Below are positions 5,632-61,749 of a stretch of 64,000 nt of DNA, piece by piece (positions within the stretch are counted from its first letter, which is position 1; the number at the start of each line of letters is the position of its first letter). The notes beneath the pieces are model-generated. The model was not told the DNA's origin and did no database searches. It worked only from the letters and a program-made list of their open reading frames with translations. Source of the DNA: Hexactinellida sp. DTS-2022 (Eukaryota > Porifera > Hexactinellida); the NCBI GenBank assembly GCA_028753945.1, contig JAPNXP010000014.1, forward strand, positions 3,844,001-3,908,000, given 5' to 3'. The position numbers and the translations under genes are program-made.

Positions 5632-5678
5632 TCTTGAACAAAATTTATTCTTGAGCTCTATACAGCTACTATAGAGCT

Positions 5679-5687: not shown

Positions 5688-5712
5688 AAGCTCACTCATA
5701 CTTAATTAGTTA

Positions 5713-5806
5713 ATTCTCATTGGTTAATAATTCCTGCATGCATAAAGCTGTTATAAAAATTAACCAATTAAATTAATAATTTAAGTAGAAAATTCTCATT
5801 GGTTAA
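5713..5806 (-). promoter_or_regulatory. Two CCAAT boxes upstream of Helitron gene
   Basis: The minus-strand motif TTAACCAATGAGAA occurs twice, near 5713-5726 and 5793-5806, with further AACCAAT half copies between. CCAAT boxes 30-120 bp upstream of a TATA box are typical of animal promoters. No binding test is possible here. Confidence 0.4.
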
Positions 5807-5870
5807 CAACACTATTTTAACATTTTAATCATAGAATTATCCATAGTATCTATCATATCTGTTTAGTAAC

Positions 5871-6780
5871 GCGAAATTCGTGTTCGGCATACTTGTTTAC
5901 CTATAATACCCGTCGAAAGCTTACTTATAGGTTAATTTTGAATTTTCATTAATTTGTTTACCTATTTTGTGTCAAAACAACAACAAATATTAATAATAGA
6001 AATTTCTAAATGCGAAATTCGTGTTCAGCATACTTGTTTACCTATAATACCCGTTGGAATCTAACTTCTAGGTTGATTTTAAATTTTCATTAATTTGTTT
6101 ACCTATTTTGTGTAAGCAACAACAACAAATATTAATATGAGAAATTTATAAACGCGAAATTCGTCTTCAGCATACTTGTTTACCTATAATACCCTTTGGA
6201 AGCTAACTTCTAGGTTGATTTTGAATTTTCATTAATTTGTTTACCTATTTTGTGTCAACAACAACAACAAATATTAATAATAGAAATTTCTAAATGCGAA
6301 ATTCGTGTTCAGCATACTTGTTTACCTATAATACCCGTCGAAAGCTAACTTCTAGGTTGATTTTGTATTTTCATTAATTTGTTTACCTATTTGTGTAAAC
6401 AACAACAACAAATATTAATATGAGAAATTTATAAACGCGAAATTCGTGTTCGGCATGCTTGTTTACCTATAATACCCGTTGGAAGCTAACTTCTAGGTTG
6501 ATTTTGAATTTTCATTAATTTGTTTACCTATTTTGTGTAAACAACAACAACAAAAATTCATATTAGAAGATTTTAAACGCGAAATTCGTGTTCAGCATAC
6601 TTGTTTACCTATAATATCCGATGAAAGCTAACTTCTAGGTTGATTTTGAATTTTCATTAATTTGTTTACCTATTTTGTGTAAACAACAACAACAAATATT
6701 AATATGAGAAATTTATAAACGCGAAATTCGTGTTCAGCATACTTGTTAACCTATTATAACATTTGTTTACCTATTATAAC
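5871..6780. repeat. 142-bp tandem array (about 6.3 copies) in Helitron 5' region
   Basis: Copies begin with GCGAAATTCGTGTTCAGCAT at 5871, 6012, 6154, 6296, 6437, 6579 and 6721, a period of 141-143 bp. Each unit also holds two GTTTACCTAT motifs and a CAACAACAACAAATATTAAT tract. The array lies between the candidate 5' terminus and the promoter. Internal arrays of about 150 bp are known from Helentron-type and other animal Helitrons and their non-autonomous relatives. Confidence 0.85.
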
Positions 6781-26292: not shown

Positions 26293-28266
26293 TCACTTTC
26301 CATCTACAACCAATATGTCAACTTCATGTTGCAGATAAAAAAGGATCTCAAAAAATTTTTTGCGAAGTCGCTTCTCCTTTTCACAACAGTTCTCAATTAT
26401 GTAATAAATTGAATGAGGGCAATGAATAGGTGAATTCAGCTTTTTTCCGCTCAGAACTTCAATTACAGTTGAAATATTTGTTATTGAACTCCATGGCTTT
26501 TTCCCACAACTCCAGATTTCATATAACAAACACCCATAAGACCAAACATCAGATGCTTCAGAGTACTTTTGTTCCGAAAGTGCCTCAGGAGCGGTCCATT
26601 TGACAGGAATATTCCCGGAATTGTTGGGTATATAATAATTTTCCATCTTTGAAAGCTTTTTAGACATTCCAAAGTCAGCAATTTTACAAGTTAATGAATT
26701 GTCAAGGAAAATATTTCTTGCAGCAAGATCGCGATGAACGAAATGTTTCTCGGATAAGTATTTCATTCCAGTTGCTATATCTATTGATGCCTTTAGAAAA
26801 AAAGGATGGTGTGAAACTATGCAATGTTGATCCAATTTATGATTCAAATAACTATCTAGGTCACCATGGTTCATAAATTCCATTATTATCATTGGAGGAT
26901 CAGTAAGAGTGACTATACCAATAAGTTTCATTATATTTGGATGTGAAAACTGCCCCATAATAGCAGCTTCTTGTAGTAATAATAAATTATCTATTTGTTC
27001 CAAGCATTTAGATGACTTTATAGCGATAGATGAACAACCTTTTCCAGTTATCCATCGTCCTTTATGAACTTGACCAAATTCACCTACCCCTAAAATGTCC
27101 CCTTTATAAAGGTGCTGAGAAAATATTTCTCTAAATTTGAAGGTGGAAAATTGAGAAAATAATTCTTCTATACTTTTACCTGGAGTCCAAAATGTCTGCA
27201 GAGGAGTAAAAAACTCGTCGCAATCGTAGTGTTTCTGATTTATGCCATCAATATAACCAGACGTGAATAAATAAATTCGTTCTTCAATAGTGGGTACTAT
27301 AATAGCCGAATAATGTTCAATCATATACTGAAGAATTACTTTATTACTCTCAGTTTCATCAATTTTCTCAGATAAAAGATCAAAAGACAGTGATCTATGA
27401 CTTGAATTATCGTTATCATAAACATTAAATATCGACATTGGCCTAAAAGTTCTCACTAGAGAATCTTGGTTTGCTCTTTCATAATTTTTATTACATATTA
27501 AATTATTTTCACTACTATGTAAATAGTCTGAGTGTATTTGTAGTGATAAAGATGGGTTTAAATTTTTAGAATGATCTTTATTCTCCATCCAACAAAGTCT
27601 ATATATTATAAAAACTCCAAAAAAACATGCGATAAGTAGAGAATAGCAAATAAGCAAAGTTCCAATCATTCCAAATAAAATGAATTCTGTAGGAGTAAAC
27701 GTTGGATTTTGTGTTACAGTTGAGATATTCAATATAGTAGAATTTGAAGGAATAACCACTAAGTTGTGCTCATTGGGAGTAGAATATACAAGTTTCGAAG
27801 GACACATCTGAACAAAATGGATTAGAAGACAAAAATTGAATGAGGTAAACTCTCTTGAACATTGAAGGTAAATTGTTTGGTTAAGCAATTGGCGGTAAGA
27901 CTCATTAGTTAGCTGTTGTATAGTTAATTGTTGATCATCAATCCCTCCCAATTCAAAACGAATATTATTTATATTAGCTCCCCGATCCTCAAAACATCTC
28001 ACTGGAAATTCGTTGATCAGTTTACATTCATTCTTAAATGTATTAAGCACAGAGAGCTTATTTTTGATCAATACACCAGTCTCTACACCTGAAAGCGCAA
28101 TTACTGGATTGTAACCAAGTCCATCAAAAGTATAAGTATTGCACCCAATACAAAAAAGACTCACCGGTTCATAGAGTAAAGGATCACATAATTCACCAAT
28201 AAAAGCTGATACAGCTTGGAATAAGAAGAAAATAACTACAACAGAATTACAAGCATCAGCCTCCAT
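26293..28266 (-). CDS. Receptor-type tyrosine kinase, single uninterrupted exon
   Basis: The 657-residue protein starts at the ATG at 28266. Residues 1-24 are a signal peptide (VVVIFFLFQAVSAFIG core); about 25-192 form a short cysteine-containing ectodomain with four N-glycosylation sequons; 193-223 are one membrane span (FILFGMIGTLLICYSLLIAC); 390-650 are the kinase. Visible catalytic elements: GVGEFG loop, AIK lysine (417), HRDLAARN (511-518, the tyrosine-kinase form), DFG (531-533), a YY pair in the activation loop (544-545) and APE (559-561). The ectodomain matches no family I recognise. Near the C-terminus the usual CW..dP..RPtF block is replaced by CCEKEKRLRKKFFEIL, so the Trp and the Arg-Pro are missing. 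No intron is evident, which suggests a compact or retro-copied gene. Transposon relics flank it on both sides. Confidence 0.9.
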   Translation of the reverse strand: MEADACNSVVVIFFLFQAVSAFIGELCDPLLYEPVSLFCIGCNTYTFDGLGYNPVIALSGVETGVLIKNKLSVLNTFKNECKLINEFPVRCFEDRGANINNIRFELGGIDDQQLTIQQLTNESYRQLLNQTIYLQCSREFTSFNFCLLIHFVQMCPSKLVYSTPNEHNLVVIPSNSTILNISTVTQNPTFTPTEFILFGMIGTLLICYSLLIACFFGVFIIYRLCWMENKDHSKNLNPSLSLQIHSDYLHSSENNLICNKNYERANQDSLVRTFRPMSIFNVYDNDNSSHRSLSFDLLSEKIDETESNKVILQYMIEHYSAIIVPTIEERIYLFTSGYIDGINQKHYDCDEFFTPLQTFWTPGKSIEELFSQFSTFKFREIFSQHLYKGDILGVGEFGQVHKGRWITGKGCSSIAIKSSKCLEQIDNLLLLQEAAIMGQFSHPNIMKLIGIVTLTDPPMIIMEFMNHGDLDSYLNHKLDQHCIVSHHPFFLKASIDIATGMKYLSEKHFVHRDLAARNIFLDNSLTCKIADFGMSKKLSKMENYYIPNNSGNIPVKWTAPEALSEQKYSEASDVWSYGCLLYEIWSCGKKPWSSITNISTVIEVLSGKKLNSPIHCPHSIYYIIENCCEKEKRLRKKFFEILFYLQHEVDILVVDGK

Positions 28267-28316
28267 TGTGAACACTATATTATTAATGTAAAATCAAGTA
28301 TCGGTATATTATCTCA

Positions 28317-37434: not shown

Positions 37435-37675
37435 CTTTAACCAATAATGGAGTTTAATTAATGACAAAATTATACAACAAATACATATCTTAAATTATCC
37501 ACTAGTTAAGGCAACTATGTTTAAAAGTTCCAATTTGCAAGGGAGTTGAGATATTACGACATTCATGATTTGATTCAAATTTCCACTGAATTCAACTTGC
37601 TTACAAAAGAACTTTCTTTAATTAACTAGAGTCAATTTGTTATAGAATAATATTTGATTTTGTTTGTTTTATTTT

Positions 37676-38191
37676 ATGGCATCAAAGAATTTCCAAATTG
37701 ATATTAATCAGTCTCCTTTTTTTATGGAGTATCCTAAAATTTCTGGGGATTCAACTCAATGGAATAGTAAGGAGTTAAACAAGGTTAAAAAATGGATTGT
37801 ACTAGAAAAAATTCATGGTGCTAATTTTGCTTTTTATATATCTAGTACTGGTGCTATACAAGTTGCTAAGCGTAGTTCATTCCTTTCCTCAAAAGAAGAT
37901 TTTTTTGGGATACGAAACACCAACATTATACCAGAAATTAGTGATAAGTTGCTTAATATTTACAGACACATTTCTTGTAGATATTCTGATATTTTCCAGC
38001 TCTCTTTGCATGGTGAACTTTTTGGAGGTAAGATCAATATGAAACACTTTTTAAATTACAGCTGTCCCGTCAGCATGTTATTTGACACACTATATTTTGG
38101 TGGTTGTTTAATTGATAGTGTCTCCAAAAGAATATACTATCGGCAATTCTGGCTTTTTAGATTTATCCTTCGTCATAATTTCAAAGTTTAA
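37676..38191 (+). pseudogene. Rnl2-type RNA ligase, truncated; C-terminus derived from R-A repeat
   Basis: The ATG at 37676 (MASKNFQIDI) is the first Met of the frame. Residues 37-118 match the N-terminal adenylation core of the Rnl2 RNA ligase family: WIVLEKIHGANFAFYI with the nucleophile Lys45 in K-I-H-G, VAKRSSFLSSKEDFFGIRN after it, and LHGELFGG (113-118) as motif III. Such enzymes seal nicks in RNA through an adenylated lysine. From about residue 137 (DNA 38085 on) the frame enters a hairpin of the R-A transposon, so motifs IIIa, IV and V are absent. At 171 residues it is roughly half the family length, and ligase activity is not expected, though partial adenylation cannot be excluded. 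No intron is seen. Confidence 0.7.
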
Positions 38192-40034: not shown

Positions 40035-41063
40035 CTAGCTACGCTTCAAGTATTGGTGTGTTGAATAGCCCGCAATAAATGATAAGGACTGGAGGACCTG
40101 GATACTGCACTCAATGATAGATAGGTCTGATATTGCATTCAAAAATGGCTCTAAATCAATCTCGCAGTCCGATTCTACGCTGTCCACAGAAGAGAATGAT
40201 TCTATGAACTCTTGTAAAGAAGATGTGCTAGATACAGTCTGACTGGAAAACAAGTTTAAGATGCAGGAAACTTTAAGACGACACTCCGATTCCAAGGTCT
40301 GAAGATAAGAAACGTGATAGTTGGAACCTGACATCATACGATATAAACCGAAATAGTGTTCCAATGGATCTGTCTGCAGGAATGATGTTAAGGAAAACAA
40401 GTTTAAGATGCTGGAAACCTTAAGACGACGCTCCGATTCCAAGGTCTGAAGATAAGAAACGTGATAGTTGGAACCTGACATCATACGATATAAACCGAAA
40501 TGGTCTTCCAATGGATCTGTCTGCAGGAATGATGTTAAGAGAAATGAATAGCCGCAGTTTTCAGTTAAGAAGTTTGTAATTTGAGGTAATACTAGACAAG
40601 CATGTCTCAAGCTTGTAAATGTCTGCTTGCTCAATTTTCTTCCTTTCTCAAGCAATGACTGCCAGGCATCTAACCAGTAAACAATGCGCGTTAGAAAAAT
40701 AAAGCGGTCATCATTAGAAATCAAAGGACGAGATAAATAATCATTTAAACGAACATGTTTATATGGCCTATTAACATTAACTATTTTCCAAAGTAATAAT
40801 AGAATCTGAACAAATTCCGAGGTATGGGATTTGAATGCTGGGCTGCGTTGTTCATTTTGAATTTCCAGAGCTGCAATAGTGGATTCATGAACTACCTTTA
40901 GAACAAGTTTAACATTATGACGTTCGAGGCTAGATGGATAACAAGACTTAAGAGTCAAACGTGGAGCGAGTTTTGCCAACCTATCCCTCTCTGAATTATA
41001 TAGCATTCGAATATCACGAAAAGAAGTGTGAAAATTTTCCAAAGGATTTGGTGGATCGATCAA
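40035..41063 (-). pseudogene. P transposase C-terminal region with internal duplication
   Basis: The segment contains PLENFHTSFRDIRMLYNSER, APRLTLKSCYPSSLERHNVK and NRPYKHVRLNDY, blocks typical of THAP9/P-element transposases after the GTP/insertion region. The segment SFLQTDPLEDHFGLYRMMSG then occurs twice in tandem (49 residues each). It closes with LSFIAGYSTHQYLKRS, the C-terminal IAGY block. It joins the upstream piece through a frameshift near 41060 (LDCI into the PPNPLENF frame). The duplication would disturb the catalytic-Glu domain, so function is doubtful. Confidence 0.85.
40245..40538. repeat. 147-bp tandem duplication inside P transposase
   Basis: Units start with GGAAAACAAGTTTAAGATGC at 40245 and 40392, exactly 147 bp apart, with only a handful of mismatches. 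The frame is preserved (49 codons). Confidence 0.95.
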
Positions 41064-41418
41064 TGGAGATGCAATCTAAATCAGGATAAGAAAAGAGTTT
41101 GCCATCAGATTGCTGATTCAGCCAATTATTGCGAATACTTTTTAAAATATGCACGAAGTCAAAAGTAAGAAACAGGCTCCTGTCTATACCACAAGGATGT
41201 GGTACTCGCGTTTCCAGTTTACCAGTAGGGGAAAACAATTTAAAGAGTTTCATATTAAGAGGATAATTGTCAGTAGAAATGATTTGGACAAATAGGCCAC
41301 AATCCTCAACATCACAAATACAAGATTTAATCGTGTCAAACAACTTCTCAGCTGAGACAGAAGTACATGGAAGTAAACGGACAACACACGAGCATTTCTT
41401 ATACAAACTGGACACCAT
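41014..41418 (-). pseudogene. P transposase central part, second half of RNase H-like core
   Basis: It reads IMVSSLYKKCSCVVRLLPC, FVQIISTDNYPLNMKLFKLF (with the second core Asp) and FLTFDFVHILKSIRNNWLNQ, a highly conserved P-element block. The upstream join needs a change in the T run at about 41428; the downstream join is a frameshift near 41060. Confidence 0.88.
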
Positions 41419-41660
41419 AATAGCAAAAACATTTTCGTAGGATCATCGGCATCAATATTGGAGGCAAGTATCTTACCTCCTTTGTAAGAAATGTCGGACT
41501 TCACATGTATTTCATCCATCTGAATGATTACATACTTTTGCTGTGGAGAAAAAAATTGCGTAGATTGTCTAAGAAATGTGAAGAAATCACTCTCAAGTCC
41601 AAAAGAAGAATACAATTTTTCTAAAGTATTGAAGTGAGGAAGATATAGGCAAGACATACT
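41250..41660 (-). pseudogene. P transposase central part, first half of RNase H-like core (exon 3' of intron)
   Basis: It starts after an AG acceptor at 41661 (AGTATGTCTTGCC). LYLPHFNTLEKLYSSFGL and VIIQMDEIHVKSDISYKGGK carry the first catalytic Asp of P/THAP9 transposases. The useful reading ends at KMF near 41428, after which the frame is wrong. The overlap with the next piece comes from that frameshift. Confidence 0.88.
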
Positions 41661-41714
41661 CTGGAGATATTTATAACAAGAAGGTGAAATTAAATGTGTT
41701 TAGAGGGATAATAC
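41661..41714 (-). other. 54-nt GT-AG intron of P transposase
   Basis: The donor is CACAG|GTATTATCC, with its G at 41714, and the acceptor is ATATCTCCAG, ending at 41661. Splicing joins NILTQ to SMSCLYLPHF in phase 0 and removes a stop. Confidence 0.75.
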
Positions 41715-42258
41715 CTGTGTTAATATATTATACCGTCGCCTGTTTTTCGGAATTAGACTGTTTTGAAGTTGGCAATGAATAAATTGAAGTTTTGAAATTT
41801 CCGGAGAATTGTGGAACTCTTCATCAGACTTTTTATCACTGATATTATCGATAACTTGTTGTATATGAATTCCAGCATATGCAATATGAGAATCATTAGA
41901 AGTACAGACAAGAGACGTTTCAGAACTATCAGAGATAACTGCAATTTCATCTAATAAAGTTTCAAGTTGACGTGTGTCGCTCACAAAAATTCGTGAAAGC
42001 GGGAAAATTTGGCCATTACGATATGCTCTTACGGATAAATCAATTTCTACTGTCAAATATATATTAACTAGAATTTTGTTATTATCTAAACGAGGGCGCA
42101 TAAGAATCAAAGAATTCGGATTAGGATACCAATATGATATGACATTAGAAATACAAATAATTGGTAACTTATTTTGCAAATCCTGGAAACTGTTCAATAT
42201 AAACCTCTCATTCTCTTCAATATTCGATTTCAGGCTAAGATGTAATGCTTGTGAGAAG
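41715..42258 (-). pseudogene. P transposase region between THAP domain and catalytic core
   Basis: The frame begins EFFSQALHLSLKSNIEENER near 42258, runs through ISNVISYWYPNPNSLILMRP (also found in the second P relic at 49.3 kb) and ends at RRRYNILTQ at the splice donor. It joins the THAP exon by a shift in the A-rich tract at about 42265. Confidence 0.8.
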
Positions 42259-42261
42259 AAT

Positions 42262-42610
42262 TCTTTTCTTTAGATTCAATAGAAAGTCGACTACGTTTGT
42301 TGGTAGTTTGTGTAGAATAATAATTCGGGCATCCGGGTAGAATGGATGGTACAGCTCCTTCTTTAAGCTTTAGGTACTTTCGTGGCATCTCTCGATATGT
42401 CTCAACGCCATTCGGTACCTTGTAGGTGCGTTCAATTTCTTCTTCCTTAAAATGCAAGGAACAAACGTGCACAGTCTTGAGTTCATGAATATCATCTCTG
42501 TGGAGTGCTCGAATCCAAGCGTGTCGAAGTTCGTCTGGTTTGTGTGGCATCTTGAACACTGGGATTCGCTCGTCATCATCATAATGGCTTCTACATCCGG
42601 GAGCTGAACA
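42262..42610 (-). pseudogene. P transposase THAP zinc-finger DNA-binding domain
   Basis: The THAP domain reads CSAPGC at about 42600, then IPVFKMPHKPDELRHAWIRA, then VHVCSLHFKEEEIER and VPSI. This gives the C2CH ligands, the invariant Pro and Trp, and the AVPS/I tail. THAP binds the subterminal sites of P elements. No ATG precedes the domain; upstream sequence reads open to about 42680, and a 5' exon or a lost start is likely. Confidence 0.88.
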
Positions 42611-42961
42611 GCGGCTGGGTATTGTAATCGTGTGGAAATAATACGTATACTGCTTGAATGTAATGCTAAATCTAAATGAATTGGAGAAATGACAAAGTTT
42701 AAATGTATAGTGTTTAAATATACATATTATATACTATAATTAACATTTATGGTTTACTACAATTCCATTATTTCAAATTTCAAAAAGTAGATTAAAGTAG
42801 TAGTTTTGTGCCTTCACTATCTAGATTACGTTATTATACCCTACATTAACCTATTAAAACCAAATATCAATATATTTTGTAACAAAATAGTTAGGTCGAC
42901 TTCGACATGCCTAGTCTAAAATCCACAAGTTACTGTGAGGCCTTATGTATAGTAGGCTATG

Positions 42962-49861: not shown

Positions 49862-51470
49862 TTAACGAGATCATCATGTTACAACAATTCTAAAAAAGCA
49901 ATTTGTGGTTTCAGAATTGCAGTATCAAAGTCCTACAAAATTCAACAAATTATATTATGTTGATGAAATATTCAAGTTAGCTTTATCATTGGCATTGGCA
50001 TTGTATGAAATCAATGTATATGAATGCATTTTAACTTCCTATATAGTCTAAAAGTATAATACATTTCGACCAAAATTTTATGATTCGGACGCATTTACTA
50101 ATTTCCAATATTGTTCAAGAACTTTTGAGAGCAATCATGAGCAATTGGTTTTTACATGTTAAATGAAAGATTATGATGATACCTTCAAATTAAAAAGTAT
50201 TCTAGATGCGCGAAAGGGCGCGACTGGGGTCATCTAATGACTTTTAAACATAATATATTAGGATTTAACTATTTTTGAAAAATTATATCAGGTTCAAGAA
50301 TTATAATCAATAATCATGGTTGAAAAATAAATTTTTGTTAACAAACCTAAAATATAATTTATGAACTGATCTAGGCCTAACTTCAATAATTTTTGAGATA
50401 ATGAGACTATTACCATATAAAGAATTAAGTGCTAATTATCTTATTATCTCATAAATAATTGTAGTTTGGCATATATAATGTATTATCAATGAATAGGAAG
50501 TTACCAATTGCGGATAGATCAGTTCTAGCCTAGTTTACATAAAATCGATAGTTTTTTAGTTATGGCTCATTTTAGGAAATATACATATCCATGGCAACCG
50601 AGGAATGTGTCAACATTCCATTTAGAATTTCAATAGATTTCTTTTAACAAGTCCTGGGCATCATCATGTTCAAATCTTGATGATTTATAACGCGTCTAAC
50701 TATGTTAAAAGCATGCTATAAAAACACAATAATACCCACCAAAAATAGCGATTACGTAATCAAATGATGACATTGCTCAATTATGAAGGGTGCTATGTAT
50801 ACCTTGATACCATGTTCCTTTATAGTTATAGAACATTTATGAGGTCTATCACTACTAGTTATTTAGATAACGATAAATAACCTATTTATCAATAGCCTTC
50901 CTTTAATCCATGGTCCAGTTTCACAAAGTTGGTCTTTATATAACGTAGGTCACGGCTAGTGTTATTGGAAGACAAGGTCAATAGAGAACTTTAAAAAACA
51001 TAATTTATTCCATTTATCGGACAAAGTCCATCTGAAACATGAAGTACAAAATATATTATTATAGATTGTGGTTGATTTATAACTTAGAGTTGACTTACAA
51101 AATAATTGTTTAATAACAAATCCATTTTCGACCGCATCCCTAGTCCAATTTTGGTGTTTTGATGGGAGGTCTTATGATAGAGTAGGCTTTGTACAAACAA
51201 ATGTAATACTACTACAATGTATTGGTTTGTCAAGTCCTGGAAAATGAGAGTGACACTTAAAACAGTAGAATATTCTCAAGTTGTATAATAGGAAGGATTA
51301 TGTCCATAAAGATAGAGAATCGTTTATGGAAATTATCAGCATTTCGAAACCCATGAAGATGATCTTTATCGCATCCATCCTGAGAATTTTGATTTACACA
51401 TTATGTGTGTGTGGCCACTCATTTGAAATTTTTTCCTGAATTCATACTCAAGACAATCTCTTTCTTTTAT
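49862..51470. repeat. Repeat mosaic: P-type MITE arm, 17.6-kb repeat copy and P-like end
   Basis: 50200-50370 matches 17645-17820. 50370-50880 is a copy of the palindromic MITE arm (ATAGGAAGTTACCAATTGCG, ACCGAGGAATGTGTCAACAT, GGGTGCTATGTATACCT). 51150-51194 (CCCTAGTCCAATTTTGG...GTCTTATGATAGAGTAGGCT) resembles the right TIR of the P element and may be the end of the second relic. No gene. Confidence 0.55.
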
Positions 51471-51923
51471 CACGAGTGATATCTTAGCGGCGGATTCATC
51501 GGCGGATTCGCAGACCTCACGTTTATGCTAATAACGAAAAAAGTTTACGCTGTAAGTGAATAATTTTCACATCAGCGGAAAGATTAAATTTGTGACAACC
51601 CATATATCTTCCCAAAATGCCAAAATTCCTTAATATAACTTAGCAATTTTAGTTCAAATTTACACCTCGGTTTTTGCTTAATAACTCAAAAATTATTCAT
51701 TATTATATACAATTTTCCTTTTAATCACATATATATCTCACCAATGACAACCTGTCATGTGAATTCCAAAACAAATACAGTATTTATTTTTTGAAAAAAA
51801 GATTGTTAACATAAATTTCACTAAAATCGGCTTTCAATGATGATTTGCATACCTATCCAATATTCATAATGTATAATATGTTGTCAACTCTAATACGTAA
51901 TACTATTGATAATAATTTATTAT
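51471..51923 (+). repeat. Left long terminal inverted repeat of 9.7-kb element
   Basis: It aligns with the reverse complement of 60733-61159 along its whole length (e.g. ATTCGCAGACCTCACGTTTA, ACAACCCATATATC, TGACAACCTGTCATGTGAA). A 12-bp duplication of CGGATTCATCGG near the end distinguishes the left copy. Confidence 0.9.
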
Positions 51924-52539
51924 GTCCTTTGTTTATAATTCAATGATTTCTCACTATAAATGATACACTGCCTTTCTTCTACTTGATTTTCTTCAAATGT
52001 ATTTTCATATTTTTCAAACACACATTTTAACTTTTTTTTCCAACATTTTTTTGACTTTACAGCATATTTCTCATCTTCATTTTCTCCTCATTTCATTTTC
52101 TTCTCTCTTCTTTATTTATCCAAGTCAATTCTTCCAATTCAAGTTAGTTTATTTATTTTATTTCCCTTAGCTACTTTTTTATTTATTAATAATACCAGGG
52201 CAGGCCATGGCATGACCGATATTTTACCACTTCATTTTGAAGGATCAGATCTAAAATTTAATTTACAATAACGTGGCCCTCAAGGTTTGGATGCCCAAGG
52301 CCGGCGGAAGGAAATACCGCCGGCCTAGAATACTAACATAATTATATAATATTACTATATGCAGTCGATACCAACGGACGATAATAATTTGTTCGCTTTA
52401 TCCGGAGTTCGTATTAACCGGAGTAATACCCATTCAATCGCCATTGTAGGGACCTGATTTTGTGGAATTGTTCTTCTTATCCGGAAATTCGTATTATTTA
52501 CCGTGTTCGTACTAACGAGGTTCTATGTAGTAGCATATA
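51924..52539. other. Left subterminal region of 9.7-kb element
   Basis: Non-coding. It holds the GC hairpin AGGCCGGCGG...CCGCCGGCCT (52298-52326) and a TTATCCGG-rich segment at 52380-52510. Confidence 0.5.
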
Positions 52540-53199
52540 CAGTGGAACCCCGGAATTACGGTCACCCTTGGGACCGAGAAAAATGGCAGTAATTTCGGGG
52601 TGGCCGTAATTGTGAAACTTTTTGATAAAAACCATATTCCATTAACATTAACCATACTATACCAATTAGAACATACTATTACATAATTAATAATTAAAAT
52701 ATGCATCTAAATTTGATTGCTTGTGATGACCTGGAAAATGTGTGGAAATGGCCTTTGCGTTGACTTTATCTTCAAGAGAAGACATCATGACCAATTGCCG
52801 ATGCGATTGACCAGAATAATTTTTAATTAACTCAACTTTTGTTTCAGATCCAGTTCATTGCGTTTGCTTGATGCCATTAATAACTTATGAATTACTGACA
52901 GAATAATATGCTTTTAGGTTACTAGTACAATCTATTGTTATTTAATTGTCAAGAAATTGTTTTCGTTTTCAAACATGTAATAATGATTCTCTATTGTTAA
53001 AAGTAATTGACCATAATTCCGAGGTTAAAAATATGGTTTCGATCTAAAACAAATGACTGGAATTCGGAATAGCGGGGTGGCCGTAATTCTGAAATAAATC
53101 AATGTTAATGTCTATGTGAAGTCAGACGGGACTTTAAAAAGTGCCCGCAATATCGGGGTGGTCGCTATTCTGAGGTGACCGTTATGCGGGTTTCCACAG
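52540..53199 (-). mobile_element. pogo/Tigger-like element, 660 bp
   Basis: The left end CAGTGGAACCCCGGAATTAC and the inverted right end CTGTGGAAACCCGCATAACG, both followed by GGTCACC, form TIRs next to TA. An internal TGGCCGTAATT repeat recurs. A transposase N-terminal fragment is retained on the minus strand. Confidence 0.8.
52715..52877 (-). pseudogene. pogo/Tigger transposase N-terminal fragment (CENP-B-like HTH)
   Basis: From the ATG at 52877 the minus strand reads MASSKRNELDLKQK; then, after a 1-base shift, KVELIKNYSGQSHRQLV, the first helix-turn-helix of pogo/CENP-B-type proteins. Homology fades after about 50 codons; the rest of the transposase is deleted. Confidence 0.65.
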
Positions 53200-53243
53200 T
53201 ACTATGTATTGATTAAAATAATAATAATAATTTCATCTAGTAA

Positions 53244-53636
53244 TGACTTCAATAGAGCAATTCGTCGAAGCTCTCCAGAAACTCGGCTATGACAGCTTCG
53301 ATAGCGTAAGAGATACTTTGACCAAAGGAGACAAATATAAGCCAAATCTGTCTGGGCAAAATTGTCAATTATTCTTTTGGAAAAAACAAGGCTACTAAGC
53401 GCGATTCTCTCAGCTCCAAATGGAGATTGAAATGCGGATACTTTCAGCATCTCGTAAAGCAAATCATCAATACGCGTAAGTTTATCATTCCCATTGATGT
53501 ATCCCAATTGGCAGTAGAGCATATCAGTACTCAGTTAATATCTGCTCGCTCATATCCTGACTCTGTAGAGCTCAGTAAGATGAGTTTGAAGGAGTTCGAT
53601 TTCAGTTTCCTAATTTACAGCGAGACGTAACGAATA
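53244..53636 (+). pseudogene. N-terminal part of the 9.7-kb element's gene
   Basis: The ATG at 53244 opens MTSIEQFVEALQKLGYDSFD...LTKGDKYKPNLSGQNCQLFF, 51 codons to a TAA at about 53398. After a 1-base shift coding continues as KRDSLSSKWRLKCGYFQHLV to LKEFDFSFLIYSET. The domain is not recognised. Codon use is less AT-biased than the surrounding spacers. The foldback at 53651 interrupts the gene directly after this part. Confidence 0.5.
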
Positions 53637-53790
53637 ACAGTTTGCTAGGTCAGGGACTTCTTTAATATAGGGACTGTAAACTTCGTTTTACGTTAAAATT
53701 AGCGTAGGCCTAAAACAGTATTGTTACTTATTGATATCCCGTAATCCGCTAATGCTAGACACTGGAAATGTATTATTGTCGTATTGAAAG

Positions 53791-54542
53791 CAGGCCTGGG
53801 GTAATAGTAATATGTAATAGTAATTGTATTAGTAACGATTACATTTTAGAAGTAATAGTAATAGTAATAAGTAATAGTGTTTCAAATAGGATGTAATAGT
53901 AATAGTAATAGTAATAGAACCTATTGTAATAGGAATTATCTATTACAATTCTATAACTTCGGACTGGCTTATTTGATTTTTCGTGAAGAAATAGGAAGTT
54001 GTTAAAATATTATTAAGGCAAGATGATTATCGTTTTGAATTTGTCACTTTATTAAAATTAGTTGTTTTATTGAAATTAGTTGTTTGCTTAGATTAGATAA
54101 TATGTTTTGTTCAGGGTTCTTGCCAGGATGTTGTAAGGGTACATGAGAGTGAGATATTACTTAATGTCAATGTTTTAATGAAACCTTCAAAAAATAATAT
54201 TGACTCGAAGGGCACATGCCCACTTACGACATGTGAATAAAGGGTACAATAGCATTCAAGAAGGGCATGCACCTTTTGATAGAGGCCTAGCGAGAACCTT
54301 GGTTTTGTTTGTGTGGGATAATCATTTAAAATAATAAACTTCAGACATTCTGAATCATAGCAAAGTCTTAGTAAATGTCAGTAATTTGTAATAGTAATAG
54401 TAAAAGTAATAATAAAAGTAATAGTAATAGTAATATATTACATATTATAATAATGTAATTGTAATAGTAATAGTAATAGGAAGAAATATAAGTAATAGTA
54501 ATAGTAATATATTACATTTTAGAGTAATTGACCCCAGGCCTG
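53791..54542. mobile_element. 752-bp hAT MITE with (TAATAG)n core and perfect 8-bp TSD
   Basis: The ends are CAGGCCTGGGGTAATAG and, inverted, CAGGCCTGGGGTCAAT; TSD ATTGAAAG at 53783-53790 and 54543-54550. The terminal GGTAATAG runs straight into (TAATAG)n tracts on both sides. The middle (about 54000-54350) is unrelated AT-rich DNA. Confidence 0.95.
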
Positions 54543-55066
54543 ATTGAAAGTCATATTTTGGGATTCCAACGGTCATATTGGTTTATCGAAATATTTGTGG
54601 AATGTAAGTTATGCGATTTTCACACCCTTCCATATATATGGTAATATTGTTAAAATCTCGAGATTACTTAACTATATACATATGAAATGTATCATTTTCG
54701 TACAGGAAATCATATTTGGGAGTCCAACGGTCATATTGGTTTATCGAAAATATTTGTGGAATGTAAGTTATGCGATTCTCACACCTTTCCATATATGGTA
54801 ATATTGTTAAAATCTCGAGATTAGTTAGTTTTATACATATGAAATTTATTATTGGCGAATGTGAAATGGGAATTCATATTTAGGGACTCAGTAGATCACA
54901 TTGATTTACCTAAGGTGTTCCCCTTAGCTTATATTATTATTTTGGCACTCTCCACAGGAGGATTGCCCCGACCCTGTTTTGTAGTTTAGCTAATTCTTAC
55001 CCATCAGATATCTGTCATTATGTTGTTTATTAAAAAATCTTTATAAGTTTCTTTCAAATCTATATT

Positions 55067-55275
55067 TAAATCAATGTTGTCAAATAAAATTTATTAAGTG
55101 GTGATGAGAAATGGATTTAGGACTACATATTCTGATAAAATTCAAAAAAATTAATACTTTATACATTAATTTCCCAATAACTCTGCTGTTATTCAACAGA
55201 CCGGCTAACTGGTTAATAAAATCTCTAACCGTTAACCGATGTCAGCAACGGTTAACCGGTTAATCGAATCCAGCA
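55067..55275. repeat. R-A internal-deletion derivative in foldback loop
   Basis: TTTAAATCAATGTTGTC...TTTATTAAGTGG (start block, cf. 14505) is joined to GGACTACATATTCTGATAAA...CGGTTAACCGG (end block, cf. 16198-16355). The 1.6 kb between them is missing. Confidence 0.8.
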
Positions 55276-55757
55276 TTGTTATTTTTTAATAAACAACATA
55301 ATGACAGATATCTGATAGGTAAGAATTAGCTAAGCTACAAAACAGGGTTGGGGCAATCCTCCTGTGGAGAGTGCCAAAATAATAATATAAGCTAAGGGGA
55401 ACAACTTAGGAAAATCAATGTGATCCACTGAGTCCCTAAATATGAATTCCCATATCCCATTCGCCAATAATAAATTTCATATGTATAAAACTTTCTAATC
55501 TCGAGATTTTAACAATATTACCAATATATGGAAAGGTGTGAGAATCGCATAACTTACATTCCACAAATATTTTCGATAAACCAATATGACCGTTGGACTC
55601 CCAAAATATGACTTCCTATACGACAATAATACATTTCCTGTGTCTAGCATTAGCGGATTACGGGATATCAATAAGTAACAATACTGTTTTAGGCCCACGC
55701 TAATTTTATCGTAAACGAAGTTTACAGTCCCTATATTAAAGAAGTCCCTGGCTAGGT

Positions 55758-56245
55758 TTATTGGCATCTGGTTTCGATTATTGCCAGCTTTACGGTGTGA
55801 TGTCTAAGATAGCTTCTTCTCCTCCCCAAACAGGGTGGACTGATAGCCATTTTTGGTCATTCATAAACTGTAACAATAGTCTATGGTTAGATGCAATAAA
55901 CTTTTTCAGCTTAGAGTGTCCGCTTGTTAGTGGTGAGTTCATTCTAGTGGATGACAAACTCCACAACCAGTCGAAAAAGTTTACATTAGTTGTAGGATAT
56001 TAGAGCTATTCGGGAATTCATATTTAGCTATCACAGTCCAACAACTGGATTTGTTCACTAGCTTTATTCTAGCCTGTCGAGAAAGTTCAGATACTTTAAG
56101 CTCATTTCATGAATCTTTGTTCCTAAAATTGCATCATACCTCTTCTTCTTCAGATCAACAAGTCCCGATATTGTCATCTACCGATGACCCGCAACCTGAA
56201 ATTGATATTACCTCCAATATTCCTGCTTCCAAATTGCTAGTGTAA
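55758..56245 (+). pseudogene. Transposase-OTU gene, region after the foldback
   Basis: Coding resumes as LLASGFDYCQLYGVMSKIAS...TDSHFWSFINCNNSLWLDA and shifts frame near 56000 into ELFGNSYLAITVQQLDLFTS...CRESSDTLSSFHESLFLKL. There is no recognised domain; a Ser/Asp/Pro-rich linker follows. Confidence 0.5.
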
Positions 56246-56389
56246 TCTGTAGATGACAGTATACTCTGGGTAATGAAGTCATAGTTGAACAATCCGTGTT
56301 TAGTGAGGAATTATGTGGTTAATTTTTGCTAAGTGGAATGGAATGGAAAAGTATTACACTAATACATGGAGACTCTGTAGTATTTTCTA

Positions 56390-56989
56390 ATGATTGGACC
56401 AATTTATTTAGTTAAAAAATCAAGTGAAATTTCGTATCTGTTCTTTCTTTTCAATACAAAAAGGTTAATAAACTTAGTAGTAGAAAACAAAATAGCTGTT
56501 TTTTTAGAGCTTAAAGATTGTTTTGAATTTACATTTGTAATAAAGAAAGTGCCGTTGGAGTGTACAATTGGTGATAATATTATTGTGGAGTATGTAGCTT
56601 ACGGAACCTTATCTGAAGAGCATTTCGATAATACAACTGTGCACTCACGAAATTTATCACATTCGCATAGGTTAGAAATAGCCAGAGGGGTAGCAGATAC
56701 ATCTGTAAATGCTTATTTCTATGATCAATTTGATTCTGTAGAGAACACAAACTTAGCTCTTAATTATGGTAACCTAAATAAGGTTAGGAGTTCTACAGTT
56801 CTGCGAAAAGCTAAATTTGATTTGTCTAGTTTACAGAGGTATTCTAATGATAACTGGACTGAGCTGATTAGCTTACAACTGTATTATAGAAATAGTGTTA
56901 TTTGTCTTCATGTTGGAGGTTACATACAGTCACTAAGTCATAATCTTTTATTGTACATATGTACACTGAAGATCAAATCAAAATATTGA
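56390..56989 (+). pseudogene. Transposase-OTU gene, pre-catalytic region
   Basis: The 199-residue frame has SHSHRLEIARGVADTSVNAY, LNYGNLNKVRSSTVLRKAKF and NDNWTELISLQL. The downstream HVGGYIQSLSHNLLLYIC is continuous with the next frame (MYTEDQIKILKLFKDTR) after a 1-base correction near 56957. The region probably lies upstream of the RNase H-like fold; no zinc finger (e.g. FLYWCH) is evident. Confidence 0.6.
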
Positions 56990-57514
56990 AACTGTTTAAA
57001 GATACAAGAATTGTTCTTCACTTAGATGCCACAGGATCTATTATTAGGAAAATGGAACCCTCACTAGAGAAAGTATTCTATTACGCTCTTACTAGAGGAC
57101 ATCCTACTTACTCCACTGTTTCAATTCCACTAGGCACTAGCAGAAATGATTAGTTCAGGACACACCAGTGCTGAAATAAGTTATTTTTTGCACAAATGTT
57201 CCCTTGACGCAAGGAAAATACTGGGCGATCTAAACATTTCACAAGTTGAAATAGATTTCAGCTGGGTTTTGATTCACATTTCTTGTAATATTTTTCTCAA
57301 GTGTGATATACATACTTATCTCCATAAGTGTTGGAATATGGTAGATGTAAATTCTGCAGTTAATGAGACGGACTTTAAAGTAATTCTTCACTTATGTTCG
57401 GCTCATTTAATACACAGTATAGGATTTCATTTAAATAAAAAATTTAAACTACAAAAAGAAGTGAGAAAACTGTTTTACATTGTATCGGATCTATTGTACG
57501 CGCTGTTGAAATGA
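56959..57514 (+). pseudogene. MULE-like DDE transposase core of the 9.7-kb element
   Basis: Two overlapping frames (shift near 57133) form one domain. IVLHLDATGSIIRK gives the first Asp in the position of the MULE iDgTf motif. After the shift, LAEMISSGHTSAEISYFL leads to VEIDFSWVLIHISCN with the second Asp, then ILHLCSAHLIHSIG, a C..H pair like the MULE C/H motif. The third acidic residue should follow, but the frame ends at 57514. The assignment to the Mutator superfamily is inference from motif order and from the long TIRs. Confidence 0.6.
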
Positions 57515-58516
57515 CAAGTATCAATAATTTATTCCAATCTTTATGCATTGTATTTATGAGTAGTTCTTAAAGTGCAATAGTAAAGACACATACTCATTTG
57601 CTGGAAACATACATTTAGTAATGAATCCGTAAACTCCTTAGAGACTAATGAATATTTGGTGGAAGAACATATGGATGATAATAATATTGCTAGTGATAAC
57701 AGGGATATTAAAACATACAGAGAAAATCGCCTTTCGGCAAACATTTTATAAATATTGCAAAAAATTGCAAATCTTGGATCAACAATAATCCAAGGAAAAA
57801 ATGCAGATACAAATCCTTGTTATAATCCTGAGCTTATAGAATACTTGTTAACATATTCTACCTACCTATATTACCTTTGTGGAGTGGGATAATCTTACGA
57901 CCTATTAGTGTAGCGGATAAGACAAGACTAGCATCTTTACCAACGCTATTGTGGAGAATTGGATATGTATTGTTAAGTTAAATATTTTGGAATCCAAAAC
58001 TAATTTGAGGCCTGGAGATTTGATACAATTGCTATATCCTGGTATAGTAACAATTTGCCTTTGACCCGCGAGCGAATAAGGTATTTAAGGGTCATAAAAG
58101 AGTAAGAAATAGTTTGGAAGAGGAAAGTGTTGAAGAATGGTCACGAAAAAAGAAAGTGTATTGCGGTTATTTACGACCTAAATCATATGAATTTCAAACA
58201 TTTAAGAAGAAAAAAGTTGAGAATAAAAACAAAATATGTAAATTAAGCGTAAATGTGTCCCACGAAAATGTGAAAAGTTATCTAGTTTACGCACGCAAAC
58301 TGCACCAAAGGTTATGCGAGTGGCCTCTATAATTACAGATGAGGAAATAGTTGAGACGGGGCTAATACGATATGTACTACCAAGCTTTGGTCCCCCACAT
58401 ACGGACTGACAAATTTATACGTGTAAAAGTGGAAGTTTCACTTTCGCGAGGAGTTACCGTACTCTAATGATGATATTTTAGATAATGAAGAAAGTTTATT
58501 TAGTTATTCGCCAAAC
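57515..58516 (+). pseudogene. Decayed linker between DDE core and OTU domain
   Basis: Several stops and shifts, yet coding signal remains: PILPLWSGIILRPISVADKT (about 57866), TNAIVENWICIVKLNILESK then NLRPGDLIQLLYPG (57942-58060), NKVFKGHKRVRNSLEEESVE then EWSRKKKVYCGYLRPKSY (58072-58200), and ELPYSNDDILDNEESLFSYS (58450-58510), which runs on into the OTU piece. Confidence 0.5.
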
Positions 58517-58969
58517 TTGACTCAATATATAATTGGCGATGGAAATTGCTATTTCTCGACAATTTCTTACCTCATTACTGGCAGTCAAGATTTCAATGCG
58601 GAGTTTTGGGAGCTAATAATTGATACTATGCTAGGTGACCTAAGTATTAGTTGCAATAAATATTTACGCACAAAATATGTTTATACGCATGGTAATTATC
58701 GAAATGTACAAGACTGGGTTAACAAAACCGGAAAGAGGAAGAGTGGGAAATGGGCTACAGATCTTGAACTCTTTGCAACTGGTTTGTTATATAATATAGA
58801 TATCTGGGTATTCTTGAGTCCGTTGGGAACACGTTGGATTGGATTTTCAGGGAATGGATCAACTTTTGAAGAGTTAATGAAGACGCCAACCCAAAATGGG
58901 ATATATTTACGAAATATTGGGAATCATTCTGAACCTATTATTTCTGTTCAATTCGAAAATAATAGTTAA
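58517..58969 (+). pseudogene. OTU-type cysteine protease domain of the 9.7-kb element
   Basis: The 150 residues contain a whole OTU domain: IIGDGNCYFSTISYLITGS with the catalytic Asp/Cys, then WATDLELFATGLLYNIDIWV, then GIYLRNIGNHSEPIISVQF with the catalytic His. The frame has no ATG at its start and is continuous upstream to about 58443, so it is the C-terminus of the larger protein rather than a gene of its own. OTU proteases cleave ubiquitin chains; a role in shielding the transposase is speculation. The stop at about 58967 is a natural end. Confidence 0.82.
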
Positions 58970-59640
58970 TTAATTTTTTAATTGAACAAGGAAGAGTTTT
59001 AGAAGCCTTGCAATAGTTTACCACAATATGTAGATGTAATATCCTGTTATATTTAATGGCGCCCTTTTAAAATCGTATCAGTGAAAGGAATTCATGCATA
59101 TTATCATTAATGTGTTAAATCCTAAACCAATACTAACTAGTTCTCTCTTTATTTCCATGTTCTACTAAGTAATTCTCTACCTTTTTTAGAATAACTTTGG
59201 TTATCTCGATTTCTCTTATCTCATATAAGCTTTACTAATATTTGACACTATTTTAATACCATGCACTTGTTGGTAGTCAATTCTGATATAATATGTTGCT
59301 TTACATTTATATGAGATTCACCCTCTTTAAAAGGCAAATATGTATATTTGGAGAGAAGGAATATCGGCACAAGTAAGATCATTCAGAAAGAAGTTACGCA
59401 GATTATGGAAATTAAAAAACCTGGAGTTGCTTAAAATACCTAACATTGTTGTTGTAATCATAATTGTTTATGTCTGATTCTCTTCTCTTAATTAATGAAG
59501 AATATTGCTTCCTGAAACCTCTTCAAAACAGGTTAAAGGTACGCAGGGTAAAATGAATTAAATCAAAGGATAAAATCAATTAGAAAAAGTCAAAGCAATT
59601 AAAATTAAATTAAAATCAAATTAAAGAATCGATAGCACTA
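58970..59640. other. 3' non-coding region of the 9.7-kb element
   Basis: No coding signal. Near 59515 CCTCTTCAAAACAGGTTAAA is inverted relative to 60610-60632 (TTTAACCTGTCTGAAGAGG) and brackets the satellite. Confidence 0.5.
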
Positions 59641-59654
59641 GCTTTCAAATATTC

Positions 59655-60490
59655 TGCGTACCATTAACCTGTTTGGCGTACCATTAACCTCTTCGGCGTA
59701 CCATTAACCTTTTCGGGGTACCATCTTTGCATACCATTAGCCAGTTCGGTGTACCATTAACCTCCCTGGTGTACCATTAACCTTTTCGGCGTACCATTAA
59801 CCTGTTTGGCATACCATTAAACTCTTCGATGTACCATTAACCTCTTTGGTGTACCATTAAACTCTTCGGTGTACCATTAACCTCTTTGGTTTACCTAACC
59901 TCTTCGGCGTACTATTAACCTCTTTGGTGTACCATAAACCTTTTCGGTGTACCATCTTTGGTGTACTATTAACCTCTTTGGTGTACCATTAACCTCTTCG
60001 GCGTACCATTAACCTTTTCGGTGTTCCATCTTCGGCGTACCATTAACCCCTTTGGTGTACCATTAACCTTTTCGGTGTACCATCTTTGGCGTACCATTAC
60101 CTGTTTGGCGTACCATTAACCTGTTTGGCGTACTATTAACCTGTTTGGTGTACCATTAACCTGTTTGTCGTACCATTAACCTTTTCGGCGTACCATTAAC
60201 AACTTCGGCGTACCATTAACCTTTTCGGTGTACCATCTTTGGCGTACCATTAACCTGTTCGACGTACCATTAACCTGTTTGGCGTACCATTAACCTTTTC
60301 GTTGTTCCATCTTTGGCGTACCATTAACCTGTTTGGTGTACCATTAACGTCTTCGGTGCACCATTAAACTCGTCGGTATACCATTAACCTGTTTGGCGTA
60401 CCATCAACCTCTTCGGCCTACCATTATCCTCTTTGGTGTACAATTGACCTTATCGGCGTACCATTAACCTTTTCGGCGTACCCTTAACTC
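59655..60490. repeat. 20-bp satellite, about 40 copies
   Basis: Degenerate units of GGCGTACCATTAACCTNTTC, with occasional 13-bp short units (GGTGTACCATCTTT), run without interruption between the gene and the right TIR. Inverted 20-bp motifs flank the array. Confidence 0.95.
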
Positions 60491-60732
60491 AGCATTCAGT
60501 GTAGCATTAACATCCTTGAGTTTTAATATTTAATTAAGACTATTTATTCTTGCATAATTCCTAATTTAACTAGTCCATTCAAATTCTTATGCGTACCTTT
60601 AAGGCTTTAACCTGTCTGAAGAGGTTTACAGTAGTAATCACTAATCCTGATTTTATTAGGAAGTGCACTAATTAATTATTCTTCAGAGGTACCAAAAACT
60701 TTAATTCCTGTGAATACTGTGACGCAAATCAA

Positions 60733-61159
60733 ATAAATTCTTATCAATAGTATTATTAGAAGTTGACAACATAGTATTCTACATTATGGATATTGAAAAG
60801 GTATGCTAATCATCATTGTAAGCCGATTTTAGTGAAATTTATATTAATAAGACTTTTCAAAAATGAATATTTTGTTTTGAAATTTACATGACAGGTTGTC
60901 ATAGGTGAGATATATATGTGATTAAAAGGAAAATTTTATATAATGAATAATCTTTGAGTTATTATTGAAAAGCCGAGGTCTAAATTTGAACTAAAATTGC
61001 TAAGTCTTCTTAAGGAATTTGGCATTTTGGGATTATATATGGGTTGTCACATCTTTCATCTTTCCGCTGAGGTTAAAATTTTTAACGTACAGCGTAAACT
61101 TTTTGCGATATTAGCATAAACGTGAGGTCTGCGAATCCGCCGCTAAGATAACACTCGTG
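60733..61159 (-). repeat. Right long terminal inverted repeat of 9.7-kb element
   Basis: Reverse complement of 51471-51923; it contains ATTTACATGACAGGTTGTCA, TATATATGTGATTAAAAGG and CGTGAGGTCTGCGAATCCGC and ends CACTCGTG before the CTTTTAT duplicate. Confidence 0.9.
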
Positions 61160-61166
61160 CTTTTAT

Positions 61167-61749
61167 CGTGAGAATATGCGGCCTTTCTTATTAAGGAAAT
61201 TGTCAAAATTCTCAGATTTGTACCCCGATTGTTGTTCAGTACTCACTGAAAATATATGGAATTGAATGGAAATTGAAGACCCGGATTTTAACTTTTGTCT
61301 TGATTGGCCTTTTAGATCGTGGCTGCTTAAAATGGCCCTTCCAATCACGTGCTAAATGTGGTGTTTATACCTGGAAAGTGTTTACAATTATGTTTTCAAT
61401 CGGATTCAAGCAACTAACTCTCCTAAAACTCGATAGTGAAAAGTGCGAAAGACTTCGTTGATCATTGTATAGATTGCTTAGTACAGAATTACTTTAAATT
61501 TAACAACAGTAGCCAATTGTCACTTGACAACAACAAGACAAAGAACCATAATGTTCCTACTACCTGCCCCAAAGAAACTCATAAGAAATTCCTCTAAACA
61601 TTTGCTTAGTTTTCATAATTTACTGCTAGTTTGCATGTAGTAATTTTCTTGAACTTGAATTTATGTTGGGAGACAAATATGAACCATATATACTACTTTG
61701 ATATGTTTAGTTGATATAATGAGTATAGTATTAATCAGGTAATTGGTTA
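61167..61749. other. Non-coding stretch, no gene seen
   Basis: Short open frames on both strands without recognisable motifs. It may continue the retroelement relic found further right, but nothing supports this. Confidence 0.35.

What the first reader, a model, noticed from the sequence alone, without database searches (positions are those of the whole stretch)
51471..61159. A 9.7-kb long-TIR transposon encoding a MULE-like transposase joined to an OTU protease
Inverted repeats of about 440 bp, a 7-bp CTTTTAT TSD, and one plus-strand gene whose pieces read from HLDATGS (first Asp) through EIDFSW (second Asp) and CSAH to an OTU domain with D/C/H intact. A satellite array sits beside one TIR, as in foldback elements. 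I know of no named family with this exact combination (DDE of this type, OTU, long TIR, internal 20-bp satellite). Assignment to Mutator is inference.
Basis: partly seen in the sequence, partly recalled or inferred. Interest (0 to 1): 0.85.

Follow-up and report, generated by a model that had tools for sequence, protein, structure and literature searches.

The report
Mutator-like animal transposon with ubiquitin protease
This is a decayed copy of a jumping gene whose intact sister copies elsewhere in the same genome encode one large protein joining a DNA-cutting transposase to a ubiquitin-removing kind of protease, and the protease is about as strictly preserved as the cutting part, so the transposon probably needs it.

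Summary
Largely real. The window holds a dead copy of a long-TIR transposon; 3.9 of its 9.7 kb are later inserts (pogo-like, hAT-like, satellite-bearing). The host genome (112 Mb, 18 contigs, unnamed) holds near-identical copies of about 6.4 kb with one 1245-codon gene: zinc-finger-like region, DDE core with CxxH, C-terminal OTU protease with Asp/Cys/His intact; eight have open frames of 1254-1255 codons. Target duplications are 9 bp in six of seven paired sister copies (8 bp in one); the window's 7-bp repeat is a 9-bp duplication with one mismatch. The 20-bp satellite is not a family trait: 16 other copies lack it at that place. The 3' TIR is tandemly duplicated in 8 of 9 readable near-identical copies. 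OTU matches 6 of 6 sampled clade members and is under purifying selection. Pfam's MULE model matches 0 of 6, so 'Mutator' rests on TIR, TSD and motif layout. A MULE with OTU is already tabulated (MuDR-6_HM, Hydra): a new variant, not a new kind. Unexpected: sister families carry a 2A (StopGo) motif upstream of the transposase; 26 of 100 listed 2A-like sites lie 0.3-5 kb upstream of family genes, 0 in both controls.

The parts
51463..51471 (.). left target-site duplication TCTTTTATC (one mismatch to the right copy)
51471..51921 (+). 5' terminal inverted repeat (~430-450 bp)
52540..53202 (.). miniature insert with pogo/Tigger-like ends (name recalled), absent from the intact copy
53243..53650 (+). 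start of the broken transposase gene (MTSIEQF...), preceded by a conserved splice-acceptor-like sequence
53651..55750 (.). 2.1-kb insert inside the gene with hAT-like ends (name recalled) and GCTAGGT on both sides; holds a further palindromic repeat at about 54543-55619
55751..57856 (+). gene continued: N-terminal part, zinc-finger-like region, first Asp (HLDATG), second Asp (EIDFSW), CSAH; frameshifts and stops
57921..58445 (+). gene continued: stretch with the DDE Glu motif, then linker
58427..58969 (+). OTU cysteine protease domain (GDGNC ... H), 90.6% identical to the intact copy
59497..60623 (.). satellite-bearing insert with short inverted ends; stands in place of about 53 bp of the intact element
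59656..60488 (.). 20-bp satellite array, 43.7 units
60732..61159 (-). 3' terminal inverted repeat, single in this copy
61159..61167 (.). right target-site duplication GCTTTTATC

Best explanation
The window carries a dead, older member of an autonomous cut-and-paste transposon family that was recently active in this genome. The intact element (~6.4 kb) has long TIRs, makes mostly 9-bp target duplications, and encodes one ~1245-aa protein: an N-terminal part with a conserved C-x4-C...H zinc-finger-like stretch (inferred TIR binding), a DDE transposase of Mutator-like layout (D, D, CxxH, E) that would cut and rejoin the ends, and a C-terminal OTU cysteine protease. The OTU domain most likely acts as a deubiquitinase in transposition or in protein stability, removing ubiquitin from the transposase or from host repair factors at the cut. 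Shown: anatomy, target duplications, intact and near-identical copies, invariant catalytic residues, purifying selection. Inferred: binding, catalysis, deubiquitinase activity and its target.
For: TIRs and coherent gene. Eight copies with 1254-1255-codon open frames among 150 scored of 335 candidates. Loci of the near-identical group match the L075 gene at 96.6-100%, most at 99.6% or more. TSDs: of eight element pairs, 6 exact 9 bp, 1 exact 8 bp, the window copy 9 bp with one mismatch; the distant family L078 has an exact 9-bp TSD. OTU by Pfam in 6 of 6 members, best E 1.2e-9. DDE, CxxH and the OTU triad invariant in 6 of 6, at 33-81% identity to L075. 85 of 150 transposase-core matches have an OTU match 0.3-4 kb downstream on the same strand; 0 have one upstream, 4 have one on the opposite strand. 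L075/L077 dN/dS: OTU 0.133 (bootstrap 0.066-0.238), DDE 0.206 (0.145-0.295), whole 0.237 (0.196-0.293). D1-D2 spacing 73-74, inside the 60-76 given for all but one of the arthropod MULE families.
Against: Pfam MULE PF10551 matches 0 of 6 members, and none of 150 scored PF10551 places lies within 1.5 kb of the family matches entered. D2-E spacing is 220-236, above the 120-214 reported for arthropod MULEs. The OTU and DDE intervals of dN/dS overlap, and in the pair L078/L080, near saturation, OTU (0.202) is not below DDE (0.177). Structure predictions of the two window pieces allowed were of low confidence (mean pLDDT 39.6 and 51.7) and say nothing. No expression or enzyme data.
Confidence: 0.72

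Rival explanations
1. The DDE core is not a MULE but a separate superfamily that converged on long TIRs and 9-bp duplications, with its own D-D-CxxH-E core and OTU.
For: No Pfam MULE match in 6 of 6 members; D2-E spacing 220-236 against 120-214 reported.
Against: 9-bp TSD, long TIR, D1-D2 spacing and a CxxH between the second Asp and Glu are as in MULEs; that CxxH is a Mutator signature is recalled. PMC6446971 tabulates a MULE with OTU in Hydra (passages).
Confidence: 0.25
2. It is a Rehavkus-type element: 9-bp TSD, TIR up to 400 bp and a minisatellite before the 3' TIR.
For: The window copy has a minisatellite just before its 3' TIR and a 9-bp TSD, as PMC6446971 describes for Rehavkus (passages).
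Against: The satellite is an insert: 19 of 20 loci that span the place, from 16 other copies, lack it. No PHD finger in any of 6 members by Pfam up to E 5. OTU is not listed for Rehavkus in the table passages seen.
Confidence: 0.08
3. The OTU domain is a captured host passenger with no role in transposition.
For: MULEs and Helitrons are known to pick up foreign sequence (PMC6431247 passages).
Against: OTU in 6 of 6 diverged members with Asp, Cys and His invariant; dN/dS 0.13 in one pair and 0.20 in another near saturation; same gene order at 85 of 150 core places.
Confidence: 0.08
4. The OTU domain works as a protease on the element's own protein, freeing the transposase from another part of the chain.
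For: Sister families show another way to split the chain, an upstream 2A motif, so separation of parts may matter.
Against: Known OTU enzymes act on ubiquitin-like conjugates (general knowledge); no cleavage site was looked for.
Confidence: 0.1

Closest known systems
MuDR-6_HM (group 14 of Dupeyron et al. 2019, Hydra)
   Same: Mutator-like transposase with an ovarian-tumour domain (PMC6446971 Table 1, passages seen)
   Different: Listed with TIR 'None' and TSD not indicated; this family has ~430-bp TIRs, mostly 9-bp TSDs and a tandem 3' TIR. Its sequence is not held, so homology was not tested.
Rehavkus
   Same: 9-bp TSD, TIR 26-400 bp (same table)
   Different: Rehavkus has a PHD finger and its own minisatellite; here no PHD was found, and the satellite is a later insert in one copy.
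Phantom/Muta MULEs of animals
   Same: TIR 18-613 bp or none, 8-10-bp TSD where indicated; aphid Phantoms have a minisatellite (same table)
   Different: FLYWCH or SWIM fingers or none, no OTU listed; neither finger was found here by Pfam.
Ginger1 transposons
   Same: DDE transposase with a C-terminal OTU or Ulp1 protease (PMC2836005 passages)
   Different: Gypsy-integrase-like core and CCGG/CCGT duplications; here a CxxH core and mostly 9-bp duplications.
Plant MULEs with extra TIRs (Ferguson and Jiang 2012)
   Same: Extra TIR in tandem at one end (PMC3310237, abstract and section 3.1 read)
   Different: There elements with one extra solo TIR rarely have further copies and most are non-autonomous; here near-identical copies of an autonomous family carry it (8 of 9 readable 3' ends).

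Membership tests
Mutator/MULE superfamily | TSD of 8-11 bp (PMC6446971 passage) | tested here: met
   6 of 8 pairs exact 9 bp, 1 exact 8 bp, window copy 9 bp with one mismatch; L078 exact 9 bp
Mutator/MULE superfamily | long TIRs | tested here: met
   430 bp in L075, 712 bp in L078
Mutator/MULE superfamily | DDE core with CxxH between second Asp and Glu | tested here: met
   invariant in 6 of 6; D1-D2 73-74. That CxxH is a Mutator signature is recalled.
Mutator/MULE superfamily | D2-E spacing as in reported arthropod MULEs (120-214) | tested here: not met
   220-236 in 6 members; spacing varies between MULE families, so this is not a strict criterion
Mutator/MULE superfamily | match to Pfam PF10551 | tested here: not met
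   0 of 6 members up to E 5
Mutator/MULE superfamily | place in a DDE phylogeny with Repbase MULEs | not testable with these tools
   reference sequences not held
OTU cysteine proteases | PF02338 match and Asp-x-x-Cys ... His triad | tested here: met
   6 of 6 members, best E 1.2e-9; L077 alone scores below the curated cut-off (19.9 against 23.3 bits); triad invariant
OTU cysteine proteases | deubiquitinase activity | not testable with these tools
   no assay
Rehavkus | minisatellite before the 3' TIR as part of the element | tested here: not met
   19 of 20 spanning loci lack it; in the window copy it is inside an insert
Rehavkus | PHD finger | tested here: not met
   no PHD match in 6 of 6
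Phantom | FLYWCH or SWIM finger | tested here: inconclusive
   no Pfam match in 6 of 6, but some Phantoms have none
2A/StopGo peptides (sister families only) | D/G-V/I-E-x-N-P-G-P in frame before the main product | tested here: met
   L078: predicted splice in frame, 1326 aa. L079: motif CGDIEVNPGP in an upstream frame, link to the main frame not resolved. L081: not found in the 301 bp upstream.
2A/StopGo peptides (sister families only) | ribosome skipping | not testable with these tools
   needs a translation assay

The most novel reading that the evidence does not exclude
This genome hosts a recently active clade of Mutator-like transposons in which a fused OTU deubiquitinase is an essential part of the transposition machine, and whose sister families make the transposase behind a spliced, in-frame 2A/StopGo peptide that splits the nascent chain: a DNA transposon using ribosome skipping plus its own ubiquitin editing.
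Probability: 0.4. Interest if true: 0.7.

Novelty: new variant of a known kind. Interest (0 to 1): 0.52.

Why it matters
Proteases of the OTU and Ulp1 kinds have been noted on several transposases, and a role for the ubiquitin pathway in transposition was proposed there as a possibility (PMC2836005 discussion passage). Here is a recently active family with intact copies, intact protease residues and a measured constraint, so the question can be tested with natural copies. The 2A motif upstream of sister transposases, if it works, would put ribosome skipping in DNA transposons; the papers listed by my searches of the held library showed no such report by title and abstract start (6 of 6 listed; 15 of 755; 12 of 48).

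Tried and rejected
Pfam scans of the window pieces alone: the OTU match was below cut-off (18.3 against 23.3 bits) and there was none to a transposase; intact copies were needed. Rfam and tRNA scans of the window: nothing. PDB sequence searches: one chain with L075 alone (OTUD1, E 0.17); six with the six-member profile: OTUD1, OTUD3 and OTUD5 chains and two chains labelled viral RNA polymerase (viral OTU domains, by recall), best E 0.0011, all on the OTU part. Scans for relatives in viral contigs and bacterial/archaeal genomes: none confirmed. Structure prediction of two window pieces: low confidence, so no fold search was made. Satellite as a family trait: rejected. Foldback nature: the inner palindrome at 54543-55619 lies within the hAT-like insert. 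dN/dS for L079/L081 was saturated in every part and for L078/L080 saturated or near it (OTU 0.202, DDE 0.177), so only L075/L077 was bootstrapped. In one search the script prints 'longest exact TSD 0' for the window copy because the mismatch lies at one end of the 9-bp repeat. L065 and L069 gave no TIR match and were left out of the tandem-TIR count, so it is 8 of 9 readable among 11 examined. Paper searches without use: (none found). KolobokP paper (PMC9587614): no OTU or Mutator term found.
Full report
What is in the window. Inverted repeats of about 430-450 bp bound 51471-61159. With the ends set at ACGAGTG...CACTCGT, the flanks are TCTTTTATC and GCTTTTATC, a 9-bp duplication with one mismatch, not 7 bp. 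Between them lies one plus-strand gene. Against an intact copy (L075) the window element aligns in main blocks of 87.5-94.9% identity, separated by three inserts: 52540-53202 (pogo-like ends), 53651-55750 (hAT-like ends, inside the gene) and 59497-60623 (the first two names are recalled from the ends). The gene is further broken by frameshifts and stops. It is a dead copy.

The satellite is not part of the family. The 20-bp array (59656-60488) lies inside the third insert, which has its own short inverted ends. Among the loci held it occurs only in L026 and L063, both the window copy. Many loci do not reach that place; of 20 that span it, 19 have 52-75 bp there and no satellite, and only L026 has 1128 bp with it. 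The 19 are 16 distinct copies, as three copies appear twice (L024/L073, L064/L075, L067/L076). They include older, diverged copies (L003, L006, L021, L025, L027, L030), so the satellite is not an ancestral part lost by the young copies. The satellite has 2,798 pattern matches with up to one mismatch genome-wide, none for the reversed control; those listed form arrays on contig C1.

Intact family. In the window's own genome (112.4 Mb, 18 contigs, unnamed) the TIR has 41 listed matches, with 40 of 206 candidates scored. The transposase core has 150 scored matches of 335 candidates; eight lie in open frames of 1254-1255 codons. Loci of the near-identical group match the L075 gene at 96.6-100%, most at 99.6% or more; the lowest are from the C10 copy and the C18:2.946M copy. 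Copies have therefore moved recently. L075 is 6376 bp. Its frame starts MTSIEQF after a conserved acceptor-like sequence, and a conserved donor-like sequence upstream suggests a 5'UTR intron (read by eye, no RNA). Target duplications in eight element pairs: six exact 9 bp, one exact 8 bp, and the window copy. The distant family L078 (element 7136 bp) has an exact 9-bp duplication, GATTTATGC.

Tandem 3' TIR. In L075 the 3' end holds an outer TIR (6039-6376) and an inner copy lacking the outermost 26 bp (5617-6015). Of eleven 3'-end loci of near-identical copies examined, nine were readable (L064, L066-L068, L070-L074); eight have this tandem form, L068 with part of a third copy, and L073 has one. 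The window copy has a single 3' TIR; the second subfamily L077 also has the tandem form. Plant MULEs with an extra solo TIR are known, but rarely have further copies and most are non-autonomous (PMC3310237, section 3.1 read).

The protein. An alignment of six members, the others at 33-81% identity to L075, keeps C421, C426 and H460 of a zinc-finger-like region, D595, D669, C716, H719 and E902 of the core, and D1103, C1106 and H1232 of the OTU triad in 6 of 6. A second His of the finger-like region, H467, is kept in 5 of 6. Pfam finds OTU in 6 of 6 (best E 1.2e-9) and MULE in 0 of 6 up to E 5. D1-D2 spacing (73-74) fits the 60-76 of all but one arthropod MULE family; D2-E spacing (220-236) exceeds their 120-214 (PMC13359780, section 3.2 read). 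OTU lies 0.3-4 kb downstream of the core on the same strand at 85 of 150 core matches; it lies upstream at 0 and on the other strand at 4. The 85 is a lower bound, as 150 of 709 OTU candidates were scored. Canonical MULEs are plentiful in the same genome: of 150 scored PF10551 places (of 961 candidates), 0 are within 1.5 kb of the family matches entered and 1 is near such an OTU.

Selection. Between L075 and L077 dN/dS is 0.133 for OTU (95% bootstrap 0.066-0.238), 0.206 for the DDE region (0.145-0.295) and 0.237 overall (0.196-0.293). In L078/L080, near saturation, OTU is 0.202 and DDE 0.177; L079/L081 is saturated. OTU is under purifying selection about as strong as the DDE part; that it is stronger is not shown.

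Sister families and 2A. L078 is 36-37% identical in protein to L075 and has 712-bp TIRs. Upstream of its main frame lies a stretch with ...LLVIGGIEINPGP; a 58-bp intron with GT/AG borders would join it in frame, giving 1326 aa. L079, another distant member, has ...CGDIEVNPGP in an upstream frame, but its link to the main frame meets a stop by eye, so that copy may be damaged or spliced otherwise. Genome-wide a strict 2A pattern has 9 matches and a broad one 128, with 0 for the reversed controls. Of the 100 listed, 26 lie 0.3-5 kb upstream of a family match on the same strand; 0 lie downstream of one on the same strand and 0 on the opposite strand within 5 kb; 0 lie within 6 kb on the same strand of the 150 PF10551 places. 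The 301 bp fetched upstream of L081 showed no such motif, and the 5' part of L080 was not fetched. A 2A-motif scan of the loci then held and of the window found it only in L078 and L079, so not in the window's own family. What the other 74 sites belong to was not examined; non-LTR retrotransposons are a likely source (recalled; only a title in a reference list was seen).

Mechanism proposed. The zinc-finger-like region binds the TIRs (inferred); the DDE core cuts and joins with a 9-bp stagger (inferred from TSD and motifs); OTU removes ubiquitin from the transposase or from repair factors (inferred). A role of this kind was suggested as a possibility for Ginger1 and Ulp1-bearing transposons (PMC2836005 discussion passage).

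Relation to what is known. MuDR-6_HM of Hydra is tabulated as a MULE with an ovarian-tumour domain, TIR 'None' (PMC6446971 passages). Rehavkus and aphid Phantom have minisatellites (same table); the satellite here is an insert. Paper searches on MULE and OTU (none; 28: 3 of 3 listed; 31: 25 of 93; 32: 20 of 42; 63: 15 of 90; 78: 15 of 832) listed no title or abstract start describing a long-TIR MULE with OTU. Most subscription papers, Repbase and the Phantom and Yuan-Wessler papers are not held. I therefore call it a new variant of a known kind.

Noticed in passing
L078 and L079; genome sites: 2A/StopGo-like motifs upstream of sister MULE-OTU transposase frames; 26 of 100 listed genome sites lie 0.3-5 kb upstream of family matches on the same strand, 0 in both controls.
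   Followed up: partly
window 374-5676, minus strand: Helitron remnants (Helitron_like_N, PIF1 helicase); one frame ends VQPDGNCLYRTLSHIIFG..., an OTU-like start by eye, though Pfam reported no OTU.
   Followed up: partly
window 40035-42733, minus strand: THAP domain next to a weak TNP-like GTP-binding insertion domain match (below cut-off): a P-element-like remnant.
   Followed up: no
window 26293-28293, minus strand: Protein tyrosine kinase frame of 666 codons, which suggests an animal host.
   Followed up: no
window 37658-38191, plus strand: RNA ligase domain (PF09414).
   Followed up: no
window 59497-60623; genome arrays such as C1:218985-221277: The 20-bp satellite forms arrays elsewhere; in the window it sits in a unit with its own short inverted ends, perhaps a satellite-bearing mobile element.
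   Followed up: partly
L064, L066-L068, L070-L072, L074: Tandem duplicated 3' TIR in near-identical copies of an autonomous element; L068 has part of a third.
   Followed up: yes
L028, L029: Internally deleted copies: the 5' ~1 kb of the element joined to its 3' part.
   Followed up: partly
window 53801-53917 and 54380-54528: GTAATA-rich repeats beside a large palindrome within the hAT-like insert.
   Followed up: no
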